A stretch of 64,000 nucleotides of DNA, taken from contig NC_088325.1 in the NCBI RefSeq assembly GCF_910592395.1, positions 10,480,109 to 10,544,108 of the forward strand, written 5' to 3'. Below are positions 12,001 to 24,000 of this stretch, one piece after another. Numbering within the stretch: position 1 is the stretch's first letter; every line of letters starts with the position of its first letter. Below the pieces are notes generated by a model, which was given only the letters and a program-made list of their open reading frames with translations, was not told the DNA's origin and did not search any database. The DNA comes from Lineus longissimus. Its lineage: Eukaryota > Nemertea > Pilidiophora > Heteronemertea > Lineidae. A program made the translations under genes and the position numbers.

Positions 12001-15000
12001 CCATTGGCATCTGGAGATAGTCAGCAATATTGAAAGTGCGAGATTTTGCCTGATTCTCTCGTAAAATGAGTATTCAGGAGGTGAACAGGGGCAGTTGCAA
12101 TAGCAGGCCAGTGATACTCGTTCACTCGTTGGCCAGAGTTCAACAAGGCCAGAAAACCAGAAATATCTCGGCTGCTGTGGGTGTGATGACTTCAGATATT
12201 CTGTGCTGAATATCAAGCCCAGGCCGATATCCACTAGCCTCAATTAATGAGAAAATAAGTGGCTTACATTGTTGTAAAGCCTATCTATAATGAGTTGATA
12301 ACCGATTGATTAATGGGATGTCCTAATTTTAATTGTCTGACCAGCTTGTATTATTGCTGGCTTGCTGTTTGTTTGTATAAGTGTACAGTTTGTTCTACTT
12401 CATAATTTAAAAAGGCCTTCATGATCAGTTTTTCACACTGTTGTTCACAGTAGAGCTGTTGAGTTGTACGTTTTGCATATATTCGTTGCCCAATTTACCA
12501 TAGTTCTGTATCAAAACCGAAATCTGAGCGGCTGACCAAGCAGTTGTAGCAGTAGCATTAGCCAAAGTAGAGAAGTAAAATGTGAAAATTAACCACAAAA
12601 TCGCCTTAAAGCCAGGGGAACCATAACGTAAACCTAAAATGCATTGAAATTGCTGGTCGAGTGGTGAACTTGATTGCAAAGTTCAAAAGGGTCTGAGTTC
12701 TTTGAGCTCAGCCTCTATGATACTTTATTGTTCTGTTGTCTTTCAGGATGACCACAAAATTCCCATCGAAGAATTATACGATGTCTTAGGCACCGATCCC
12801 AATCTTGTAAGTATTGTCATTGATGTCCAATGAAAGGTAAGGGTTAGGTAAAATGAAAGCAGATGTCATCCGTTGGAGGCAGTTGACAAGTGACTGCATT
12901 GAGCCTTTGAAAAGTCTCAGATTCATGTTGCACCTAAAATGGGTTGTAAGTGCTGTCATATAATCATTCAGTGCAAAAGCTCTAAAGAGTGTTTGCAGAG
13001 ACTTTGAGAGGCTGAGTAAGGATGATTGATGGAGATGCCTCGAGGCACTCAATAGATTACTTCTTTCCAGACAGTCTTGAGTCAATAATCTTCCCATCTT
13101 TCAGGGTTTAACACCAGATAAGGCAAAAGAAGTCTTTGCACGCGATGGTCCAAATTGTTTGACACCTCCAAAGACGACACCAGAGTGGGTGAAATTCTGC
13201 AAACAGCTATTCGGCGGCTTTAGTTTACTTCTGTGGATAGGAGCAATTCTCTGTTTCATTGCATATTCTATACAAGCCTCAACTTATGATGAACCACCTG
13301 GCGATAATGTAAGTATAAGTAGGGAGAAATTATTTCATTTGAAGTGGTTTGAGATCTGTAAACTACATGTATTTGGAAAAGTATGTAATTTCATTTATAC
13401 AAGAAATACTTTGAAATCTGTCGTCCTATTGGAGGCAACAGGCGTGTTTTAAAATAGATGAAATTATTAGTGATATCACTATTGGAAAAATGTTGACAAG
13501 AAAATAATACTATCGTAACTTTTTAAAACAAGCTACAAATATGAAGCGTTCTTTGGTTAGAAGATTATCAGATCATGCCGATTGGCTGTGATAGATGGAT
13601 ATTGTTAAAGTCTATTTATATTGAATTGTTCGAACTGTATTGTGTAATATAATGATCCATGATCTTATTTCCTGTTTCTTGAATGTAACTTAATAATTTT
13701 TCTCCAGCCAGGGTGGGCGTACTTTCTGATGAAAAGCATAGACACAGATGCGAGATCTGCTTGAATGCCATATCACACAATTCCACCTGAAATTCATATT
13801 TGTTCTTCTACAAAGCACTGCTGACTTTGTTGAACAACACCAACATACATGCAAATAACTTATAACACATTCGACATCGTAGTTGACTGTTCTTCCAATG
13901 GGCCAGTGTTTGAGTCCGGATGAGAACCCAGAATTAGTTTCTTCGGATTAACCGGCAGGAATTCACAGAACTAAAATTTCCGGTCCTCTTCATAACAAAA
14001 CCGAGAGAGCAGAAGTAAAGATATATAGTCTGTTTGTTGCGATTAAAAGCTGCGGTCCCTTGTACCTGAGTGTCTGTGCCAGGAAAAGTAAAACATCCCA
14101 CACATGGGGTAAAAATTGATCCAATGGTGGACTTAAAAGATTCCGTCAAAACCTCAAATAGGGGATAGAAGCCGTCGACGATTGATTGACAGATATGATG
14201 GGGTTATAATCATATTTTATCGTAAAGATTTTGCAATCTTTCGAAATAATTTGCTTCCTTCTTTCTCTTACTTCAGACCACATTGTGCCACGATGAAATT
14301 TCAACAAGATTTACCTTCAGTTTACTTTTCAGATGGTTTTCACATGACTATTTGTATAAATTCGAAATTGGACAACAAGTTTAAGAACTAAGTCACTTGC
14401 AACATTCTGGCATCATCGTCGGGGGAAAAGTCCTGACAGTGTATAGCTTTTCCCAAGGAATGGGACAACTTTTTCTGTATTCTTTCTTGAAAAAGTCGCA
14501 GCGAATTTTGGCACTTTTAAGAATTTCAAATCTTCATTCAAATTCCTGCCCTTTCAGCTGTATCTGGGCATAGTCCTGTTTTCCGTTGTCGCGGTAACAG
14601 GCTGTTTCTCATACTACCAAGAGGCCAAGAGTTCCCGTATTATGGATAGTTTCCGGAATATGGTCCCGCAGGTAACCGGACTCGTATTGTTACAGCGGTT
14701 TTTTGGTATCGTGGAAGTCTTGATGGCTGATGTCTTGATGATATCGTGATATTCTTTGGGAGTCTGCATCAGTTTTGCCTGCCCAATCGTGCTTGAAGTA
14801 GTAGTATTACCGTTACCGTGGTTTTAGGCGTTTGGGGGCTGTCAGAAACATGTCAAAAAGTCGCCAAAAATTACCTTTGAGGAATAGGCACGGGTGGTAA
14901 CGCATACAAACAAATTGAACCTGCCTGATTGTCAGTCAGTCGAAGTCGTTTAAATCTGTTTGCTCTATAGAAGTGCAAAAGCACTCCATGTAGTTGGGCT

Positions 15001-21000: not shown

Positions 21001-24000
21001 CCTTTTTATCCGGTTATTTTTTTCCAATGCATGAATGTATATATAGCGTAAACTTCTCCATTTTTTGCGAGCTGCTTATTTTCCTCATGCAAGGGAAGAG
21101 AATGATTTCATGGATGTTTCAGTCAGAAAGTCTGTCCGATGTTAAAAGCTGAAGAAATGTGTTTCATTGAAAGCAAGAAGACCATTTTGTTCGGTGAAAA
21201 AAGTTACAAAAATGGTTCCCCTAAATCTAAAAGTTGTTCCAATGTTATCAAAGCCAAACGGTGTTGCTTTCTTTGACAGTTACCCAAAAATCACTTGGTG
21301 CTGTCAAAAAACTTGCAAAAATGTTTTCCTATTAAGTTAGAGAGAGAAAAAAAGTATAAAGACAGATATTGGAGAAGTTTACAATAATTCAATGTTTTCT
21401 CCATCGCTTAGCTTATACATGTGACTAATCATTGTGTTTTAGTGTGTTAGAAGTTCGGGCATGATGGGCTACTAAATACAGGGAAAATCAGGGCGACGGT
21501 GACAAAATTGGACATTACTAATCGAGCGCCCTCTTTTAATGTTCATTTCAGTTATATTTGGCGGTGGTATTGACGGCTGTCGTGGTGGTTACGGGTTGCT
21601 TTGCCTACTATCAGGAGGCAAGCAGCTCGAAAATTATGAGCGCTTTTGCTAAAATGGTGCCTCAGGTTAGTGGCGGAGTTTAAACGGGGATGGGATGTAG
21701 TGAAAGAGACAACTGCAAATGGGAAAATTGCATTTTGATTGACCAAGTGTCCTTAAAAGATGCATATTCACTGGCTGCACTCGATCTCATTCCTAGCAGT
21801 GTTTTTGGGTTTACAGTTTGAACAGACCTGTCCATTGAATATTTTAGTTAATTCCGCCTCACCTCTGTGACCTATTAATATTTGTCTTTTTGGTTATTTT
21901 CTACCAACTACACACTTATGTCTGTCTTTTCTCTCCTTGAGCTCTCTCAAAATTCATTTGACCAAACTCTTCCCATCAAGCCATGACCCGCCATGACCTA
22001 GTATATTGTTGTAATTCACAAATCCATCCGCAAACCCATAAATTCATTAAGTTTGTCCAAATTTGCTGAATAGTACTGAAAGTCACCAGAATCTTCCCTC
22101 AATTGCCGGTATCCTGTTGACATTGAATTTGCGGTGTAATGATTTGAGACTTGCGGCTGATGACCAGTGAGGAATATCACTTAGACATGCAAATGAACAC
22201 TGCCAAAAATATACAGGGTGTACCAAATTCATTTACTGATTGGAAGCCCTGAGCCCAAATGTTGAAATATAAGGTGTACCAAAATTCATGCAATAAAACT
22301 TTAAAGCCCTGTATTATGACTCTTCTTGAATTTTAACAATTGCATTGACAAGAAGTCTCTTTTGTCCTGAATAATCCTGGTTTGCCATTTTCCTTTCTCT
22401 CTGATTTTTTGCCATAAATTTCTCCATTTCTTCATTCCCCAGTCGCTCCTTCCTGCACTTTCCTTCATCATATTTGAGCACCAACCTCAAATCTCATTTT
22501 TGACAATTTCGTAAACCACGCAAGTAGCAACAGATTGTTGTGTGTGTGTAAATTTTTATGTTCATAGAGCTAATCACAGTATTGATTTCAGCCGTTTACT
22601 TCAAATGTCTATAGAATGCGGAAAGGATTATTCTAAAACCAACTTAAAATGCCTTTAACAGAATAAAATTGGAATACAGTTGGCTATCCAAATTTTGGGA
22701 ACGAGTATTAACATTATCTCCTTGTCCAATTTCTCCGGGCCTTATGTAGTTTATGGCCTGTTTGCCGCCCTCAGGAATAACCGTCGATAGGTTTTTCATT
22801 GGCGACTTCCCTGACGTTTGATGGTCATGCGAATGGGCATGAAGGCAAGGAAATGACTCTCTCTTCCTACATGTGATGAATGCTATAGACTTTTGAAAGT
22901 ATACGGCAGGATTTATATAACTTGTTTTATTCACAAATCATCCATACATCCAATGTATTGCTGCTACATCTTTTTTTATCAGAACTTGCAGTTCGGTGGT
23001 TCTTGGAAATTGTGCAGAAAACAGCTGGGAGTAAGGTTTATCCAGCTGTTGGTATTTTTGTAAAGCAACAAATTCAGTCGGAAGGTGTCCAATGTTCAGT
23101 TATGTATAAGGCACGGACAGGGACTTTTTGTGGTGTCAAACGCATGGGGGGGGGGGTCAAGATGGTCAGAAGGGTACGGGACGGAGGGACGTACGATAAT
23201 TAGATAAATTCACAATGAGATATTTTTACCTGGAAACCTTGGGTTATCCTAAATTACCCTGGTAGGGACTCGCTCGTCGAACAGAGTTTGGCTTGGTGAA
23301 AATATGCATGCAAGTCCACTCTGTTCTGACCAAATTGTCTTAAGAATACACATTGATCTTCCTGGTTACCTACAGACAGAATTTGTTGAAAACTATTTGG
23401 ATTGATTGCTGGTAACAATTTGCGATTGAATGTACTGGTATTAAAGAACCGTTTTCCATTATTTATATTTTGTGCATTTTTAATCTACGTGTACACGGTT
23501 CATGAATTAAATGTTGATATAAATGTGTATTATTGGTAACTTCCATTACAGTATAACCTAACCGTACATGTAGCTAAAATAAACTATAACAAGAAAAGGC
23601 ATAGCGCAATAATACTAGTTCACTGCAATCTTAGCACTTTTGTAAAAATAACTACTTGAAGATGTTTGAATAGTTCATGCTATACTTTCAAGGACGAGTA
23701 CTTTTTGAACAAAATTGGTAATATCAGAAACATGTGGAGCTGTGTTGTCTCCAAGCCCTGGACATGTAACTTTAGAGACCCGCAAACAGGCAATTGTTGT
23801 CGCATGCACTGTTGATCGCAGGTCATGTTGACAGAAACTGCTGGTTTGCGGGACACTACAGATTTTACACACGGATTTTACATCCCATTTGACAATTTTG
23901 AACTTGACTCTTGCAACAATTCTCCACCACTGTCACTTGTGACATTCTTACATGAAACGGAGAACTGTCAGTGACATTTAAAAAGTTGGTTCGGTGTCTC

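What the first reader, a model, noticed from the sequence alone, without database searches (positions are those of the whole stretch)
14558..21665. Six mutually exclusive-type exons swap the M2 helix of the Na+/K+-ATPase
Six 114-nt exons with intact frames, phase 0 borders and GT/AG sites sit in tandem between exon 4 and exon 6. Each encodes the same 38-residue segment (M2 plus the linker ending MVPQ), and a working pump has room for one. The copies differ mostly inside the membrane helix and just after the ouabain loop, so isoforms could differ in ion affinity, voltage response, lipid interaction or cardiotonic-steroid access. Alternative exons at this place are, to my recollection, known in Drosophila Atpalpha; six in a non-insect genome would be an independent or greatly expanded system.
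Basis: partly seen in the sequence, partly recalled or inferred. Interest (0 to 1): 0.92.

Follow-up and report, generated by a model that had tools for sequence, protein, structure and literature searches.

The report
Six-way sodium-pump exon cluster
A ribbon worm's sodium-pump gene carries six interchangeable, long-preserved versions of the exon for its second membrane helix, so one gene could make six pumps; the arrangement resembles a smaller one in arthropods, but its use in RNA has not been shown here.

Summary
The window holds a complete Na,K-ATPase alpha gene (coding 64-34694) of the ribbon worm Lineus longissimus. Exon 5 occurs six times (a-f): 114 nt, phase 0, AG/GT-bounded, stop-free. 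No other exon showed a second copy. A genome search found one further match, the single exon 5 of a paralogue 10 Mb away. Synonymous sites are near saturation between copies while amino acids are constrained (dN/dS 0.03-0.12 in the 6 of 15 pairs where computable), so the copies are old and selected. They differ as much as random sextets from other proteins, mostly on one helix face. Best reading: mutually exclusive exons that swap helix M2. Exclusivity is inferred (zero or two M2 would mis-thread the pump); no RNA was available. Frame cannot enforce it, steric hindrance might for b/c only, and no clear docking/selector signal was found. The position is not new: ten arthropod gene models carry two exon-5 units, and an insect paper masks two alternatively spliced exons. 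New are the number, the phylum and an apparently separate expansion (b-f share FAKMVPQ). Steroid sites 111 and 122 lie in constant exon 4, which weakens the steroid idea.

The parts
64..96 (+). coding exon 1 ([11 protein letters not shown]), donor gtgagc
11367..11495 (+). coding exon 2
12747..12806 (+). coding exon 3
13105..13308 (+). coding exon 4: M1 and the M1-M2 loop (..[14 protein letters not shown]), common to all isoforms; holds sites 111 (Q) and 122 (N)
14558..14671 (+). alternative exon 5a [38 protein letters not shown]
16181..16294 (+). alternative exon 5b [38 protein letters not shown]; the one in the public protein model 'isoform X1'
16389..16502 (+). alternative exon 5c [38 protein letters not shown]
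17829..17942 (+). alternative exon 5d [38 protein letters not shown]
18821..18934 (+). alternative exon 5e [38 protein letters not shown]
21552..21665 (+). alternative exon 5f [38 protein letters not shown], with the most letters not seen elsewhere at conserved sites
16295..16388 (+). 94-nt intron between 5b and 5c; its only yTnAy branch-point match is 38 nt from the donor, so joint splicing of b and c may be sterically blocked
24239..24373 (+). coding exon 6, the common acceptor side
24655..34694 (+). span of coding exons 7-19 with their introns, each exon found once; stop TAA at 34695-34697

Best explanation
This is a cluster of six mutually exclusive exons in the Na,K-ATPase alpha gene of Lineus longissimus. 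During splicing exon 4 is joined to one of 5a-5f and that exon to exon 6, giving six pumps that are identical except for residues 123-160 (helix M2 and its cytoplasmic linker to the A domain). Shown here: the gene, the six intact exons, their age and constraint, and the lack of a further copy in the cluster. Inferred: one-only choice, because 114-nt phase-0 exons stay in frame at any copy number, but none or two M2 helices would invert the membrane threading of the rest of the pump. Inferred and weaker: the choice is made by trans-acting splicing factors, and the isoforms tune the outer, probably lipid-contacting face of M2 (residues 127, 130, 131, 134, 138) and, in 5f, the cytoplasmic end, rather than the ion sites or the steroid pocket.
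For: Six intact exons with equal length, phase and splice sites; an uninterrupted 1027-residue model from exon 2 for each of the six choices; exon 1 plus the 5b model equals the public protein P0006, 'isoform X1 [Lineus longissimus]', letter for letter, on a contig of the same length, 15,888,539. Seven matches in the genome, six here. Synonymous differences pS 0.64-0.94 against pN 0.05-0.24 over all 15 pairs; dN/dS 0.03-0.12 in the 6 pairs not saturated. Topology argument for transmembrane MXEs in print (PMC5740500, passages); on the Drosophila X only 6 of 1705 genes have neighbouring non-exclusive exons with these features (PMC3228551, passages). Arthropod gene models with two copies of the same 38-residue unit: 10 of the 263 proteins returned. 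Variability falls on one helix face, p 0.013. G at donor +5 in 2 of 6 alternative exons against 16 of 16 constitutive exons 2-18 (p 0.002) and 28 of 30 with the paralogue added (p 0.003); but see against.
Against: No transcript was seen; neither exclusivity nor use of any copy other than 5b is shown. Frame cannot enforce exclusivity (all lengths divisible by 3) and no U12 donor was seen. The docking/selector scan gave no clear signal. Donors are not weaker overall: matches to CAG|GTRAGT average 7.0 of 9 in the six and 6.9 in 17 constitutive exons, p 0.79, so the +5 difference is offset by CAG and says little. Variability tracks what the family tolerates (rho 0.59), so many differences may be nearly neutral. 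The lipid-face idea rests on a helical wheel and one paper's description, not on coordinates.
Confidence: 0.87

Rival explanations
1. One copy (5b, as in the public isoform X1) makes nearly all mRNA and the other five are old duplicates that are rarely used.
For: Only 5b is seen in the one Lineus protein of this gene that I could read (its database cluster has 3 member sequences, two not readable). 5f has letters not seen elsewhere at near-invariant sites.
Against: All 15 pairs show constrained amino acids at near-saturated synonymous divergence, and all six keep frame and splice sites; unused copies would have decayed.
Confidence: 0.08
2. The copies are spliced as cassettes: two or more can be joined, or exon 5 can be skipped, giving pumps with altered topology or a truncated regulator.
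For: Every length is a multiple of three, so any number stays in frame; arthropod gene models join two copies.
Against: A doubled or missing M2 would flip all later helices (argument in PMC5740500, passages); the arthropod joins look like automatic predictions.
Confidence: 0.04
3. The array is an assembly or recent-duplication artefact.
For: Tandem duplicates can arise from haplotype misassembly (general knowledge; no call speaks for it).
Against: Copies are 60-82% identical in DNA with near-saturated synonymous sites, and the cluster introns share only one 33-nt match at E 0.01.
Confidence: 0.01

Closest known systems
Tandem exon-5 copies in arthropod Na,K-ATPase alpha genes (insect Atpalpha and relatives)
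   Same: Same gene and the same 38-residue unit with the same borders: 10 gene models in 8 genera (Timema, Homarus, Armadillidium, Ladona, Ephemera, Frankliniella, Homalodisca, Centruroides), back to back in 8 of 10. An insect study masks two alternatively spliced exons (PMC6733596, passages).
   Different: Two units per model, not six. The first unit reads SSAIM in 9 of 10 and the second SSKIM or SSRIM in 9 of 10 (Centruroides has two identical SSKIM units), and they do not pair with the six Lineus copies. Five of the models also repeat a later exon (PAISLAYE..), found once in Lineus.
Mutually exclusive exon clusters such as muscle myosin heavy chain and Dscam
   Same: One gene makes region-specific protein variants by choosing one of several homologous exons; such clusters also occur in lophotrochozoan Mhc (PMC3912159, passages).
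   Different: Different protein; competing RNA structures of the kind reported for Dscam1 (PMC8042237, title and start of abstract) were not clearly detected here.
Vertebrate Na,K-ATPase isoforms alpha1-alpha4
   Same: A set of pumps from one ancestor with different properties.
   Different: Separate genes, differing along the whole protein, rather than one swapped helix (general knowledge, no call).

Membership tests
Mutually exclusive exon cluster | Neighbouring internal exons of similar length | tested here: met
   six exons of 114 nt
Mutually exclusive exon cluster | Same reading frame and compatible splice sites | tested here: met
   all phase 0, AG/GT, no U12 donor
Mutually exclusive exon cluster | Sequence homology between the exons | tested here: met
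   26-35 of 38 residues identical
Mutually exclusive exon cluster | Exactly one exon per mature transcript | not testable with these tools
   no RNA reads; one public protein model uses 5b
Mutually exclusive exon cluster | A known mechanism that enforces exclusivity (frame/NMD, steric block, U2/U12, RNA structure); not required by definition | tested here: inconclusive
   frame and U12 excluded, steric block possible for b/c only; docking scan at or inside the range of 8, 8, 8 and 3 shuffles in four arrangements, best case 0.4 kcal/mol beyond the best of 8
Na,K-ATPase alpha subunit (P-type ATPase) | Full-length alpha with P-type domains and the DKTGTLT motif | tested here: met
   gene model contains [20 protein letters not shown]; P0006, identical to the 5b model with exon 1, carries PF00690, PF00122, PF00702, PF13246, PF00689
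Arthropod exon-5 cluster by descent | Copies one-to-one related to the arthropod copies | tested here: inconclusive
   tree of 41 units of 38 residues (7 of the 10 arthropod doubles used): the six Lineus copies do not pair with arthropod copies, but support is low (55% for b-f with Macrostomum inside), 5a is apart from b-f, arthropod first copies do not form one group, and the paralogue's exon falls near some of them at 34%. FAKMVPQ of b-f occurs in 1 of the 262 other proteins (P0112).

The most novel reading that the evidence does not exclude
The ribbon worm has turned helix M2 of a sodium pump into a six-way cassette, expanded separately from arthropods, so that a single gene covers as much M2 diversity as is found between distantly related animals and tunes how the pump sits in, and responds to, different membranes or tissues.
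Probability: 0.4. Interest if true: 0.75.

Novelty: new variant of a known kind. Interest (0 to 1): 0.56.

Why it matters
Vertebrates diversify the sodium pump by gene duplication (general knowledge). Here selection has kept six versions of one helix inside a single gene for a very long time, with everything else constant. If transcripts bear it out, that is a natural domain-swap experiment: it isolates what M2 contributes to transport, lipid contact and inhibition, and it shows the same exon multiplied in arthropods and in a ribbon worm.

Tried and rejected
Steroid (ouabain) resistance as the driver: rejected as main reading, because sites 111 and 122 are in constant exon 4 and read Q and N, the letters called ancestral in PMC6733596 (passages).

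The paralogue's 14 donors came from a script that places introns by exact protein match, and I counted their +5 bases by eye.

A seventh, decayed copy: 15290 onward reads [10 protein letters not shown] right after tcttctttcag, but nhmmer gives E 1.7 and six unrelated YAG sites outside the cluster score at least as high, so it stays a possible relic only. An ungapped search found nothing over threshold in the cluster introns, while at least 12 of 30 shuffles did.

One of four is just beyond its shuffles, three are not: no evidence either way.

A second exon cluster in the same gene, as in arthropods (PAISLAYE exon): not found, once at 32467-32590. No Rfam family at gathering score and no tRNA in the window.

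Papers: ten searches showed in their listings no paper on alternative exon 5 of a nemertean or other lophotrochozoan Na,K-ATPase; the listings show at most 20 rows each and only open-licence PMC, so this is not proof of absence. Drosophila ATPalpha is reported with exon inclusion (PMC11765297, passages) and with a peptide for an alternative exon (PMC2648944, passages), neither placed at exon 5 in what I saw. Two MXE papers did not mention the gene (PMC3303723, PMC3228551; word search). Hatje and Kollmar 2013 is not held.
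Full report
What was checked. The six exons exist exactly as described. Spliced models with each copy give an uninterrupted Na,K-ATPase alpha subunit of 1027 residues from exon 2 onward; exon 1, [11 protein letters not shown], lies at 64-96, so the whole coding gene is inside the window. In a tblastn of the window with an alpha1 bait, exon 5 is the only exon with more than one match beyond chance. A six-frame search of the whole genome with the 5e peptide gave 7 matches: the six here and one in a second Na,K-ATPase alpha gene on the same chromosome, at C19:109126.

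Which animal. The contig holding the window is 15,888,539 bases long, the same as the contig of the public protein P0006, 'sodium/potassium-transporting ATPase subunit alpha-like isoform X1 [Lineus longissimus]', and P0006 is identical, letter for letter, to exon 1 plus the model with exon 5b. The name 'isoform X1' suggests at least one more annotated isoform; I could not see it, since the database keeps one sequence per 90% cluster (3 members here).

Age and constraint. Over all 15 pairs of copies the proportion of synonymous differences is 0.64-0.94, that of nonsynonymous ones 0.05-0.24. In 9 pairs synonymous sites are saturated; in the other 6 dS is 1.4-3.5 and dN/dS 0.03-0.12. The copies are thus old and held by selection on their protein. 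The introns of the cluster show only one weak 33-nt match (E 0.01). This excludes an assembly duplicate and makes unused relics unlikely.

What differs. With residue numbers of mammalian alpha1 (recalled; Tyr124 as the second residue of the exon agrees with PMC11594824, passages), the exon covers 123-160. Position 131 has six different residues in the six copies (S V G C F A); 127, 130, 134 and 138 also vary. Variability in the first 20 residues has a helical moment (p 0.013 against permuted positions), close to the direction of the family's own variable face, 28 against 55 degrees, and it follows family variability over the exon (rho 0.59). The six differ on average by 8.0 residues; random sextets of 181 distinct exon-5 units from other proteins differ by a median of 6.9 (5-95%: 5.3-9.1). 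Those units come from the proteins returned by three searches (top 120 of 2749, all 85, top 120 of 1567), 263 in all, of which 262 held a unit and P0006 was left out; many are metagenomic without a named animal, so the sample is not balanced. Copy 5f has letters not seen in those units at four sites, A126, S146, S152 and A153; 5c (A127) and 5a (F130, R155) have others. Site 126 is otherwise G in 180 of 181 and 146 is K in 180 of 181.

How it probably works. All six are 114 nt, so no frame shift punishes double or no inclusion. The usual argument for membrane helices applies: a cluster of exons for transmembrane helices is unlikely to be spliced as cassettes because the rest of the protein would switch sides (PMC5740500, passages). 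The same paper warns that many similar neighbouring exons are not exclusive, but the Drosophila X survey found non-exclusive neighbours of this kind in 6 of 1705 genes (PMC3228551, passages). For enforcement: no U12 donor was seen; the b/c intron is 94 nt with its only yTnAy match 38 nt from the donor, under the 50-nt steric limit used in PMC5740500, so b and c may block each other; the other four introns between copies are 878-2617 nt. A scan for one docking site pairing with all six flanks was at or inside the shuffle range in four arrangements; with one genome such a scan has little power. Donors: G at +5 in 2 of 6 alternative exons, 16 of 16 constitutive exons of this gene, 12 of 14 in the paralogue, whose single exon 5 has CAG|gtaggt. 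All six keep CAG before the junction, however, and total consensus matches are the same as in 17 constitutive donors (7.0 against 6.9 of 9, p 0.79). I therefore do not call these donors weak.

Function. In a human alpha4 structure a detergent with a sterol skeleton, and in alpha1 a phosphatidylcholine, sits in the crevice between TM2 and the TM9-10 loop (PMC11594824, passages). The variable face of M2 could contact such lipids; this is inference from a helical wheel, without coordinates. Sites 111 and 122, where insects change to become steroid-insensitive (PMC6733596, passages), are in constant exon 4 and read Q and N in this gene, so exon choice does not change them.

Comparison. Among the 263 proteins, 12 carry more than one exon-5 unit. 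Ten are arthropod gene models, with the two units back to back in 8 and separated by extra translated sequence in 2; the two units of Centruroides are identical and could be an assembly effect. The other two are a bat (exons 5 and 6 repeated, probably an artefact) and a snail (two fused genes). In a tree of 41 units the six Lineus copies do not pair with arthropod copies, but supports are low: 55% for b-f with one flatworm inside, 5a apart, arthropod first copies not in one group, and the Lineus paralogue's exon near some of them at 34%. Copies b-f share the ending FAKMVPQ, found in 1 of the other 262 proteins, while 5a ends FRNMVPQ; a separate expansion of b-f in this lineage is the simplest reading, and whether 5a and b-f split earlier is open. 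No lophotrochozoan genomic DNA other than this genome could be searched here.

Verdict. A real, old, selected six-exon cluster; mutually exclusive use is very likely but inferred; the kind is known, the extent and the phylum are new as far as the searches listed under Tried and rejected show.

Noticed in passing
L013:7180-8868 (G000:C19, paralogous Na,K-ATPase alpha gene): 19.6 head-to-tail copies of an 86-bp unit made of the end of a coding exon (..[17 protein letters not shown]) plus its donor site; most copies keep a GTGAGT donor, so the intron starts with a row of candidate 5' splice sites.
   Followed up: partly
window 15290-15320: Possible decayed seventh copy: good acceptor tcttctttcag followed by [10 protein letters not shown] in frame; not significant on its own.
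   Followed up: partly
window 28306-29391: 233-bp tandem repeat, 4.7 copies, in the intron between exons 10 and 11 of the same gene.
   Followed up: no
window 54453-54986: 67-bp tandem repeat, 8.0 copies at 98% match, downstream of the gene.
   Followed up: no
window 48543-49145, - strand: Open frame of 200 residues with a proline/glycine/tyrosine-rich stretch (PYGGYGPPPPAYAPPSGYGQQPPY..), perhaps an exon of another gene.
   Followed up: no
proteins P0003, P0004, P0007, P0009, P0010: These arthropod gene models also repeat a later exon (PAISLAYE..) two to four times, a second likely alternative-exon site of this gene; it is found once in Lineus.
   Followed up: partly
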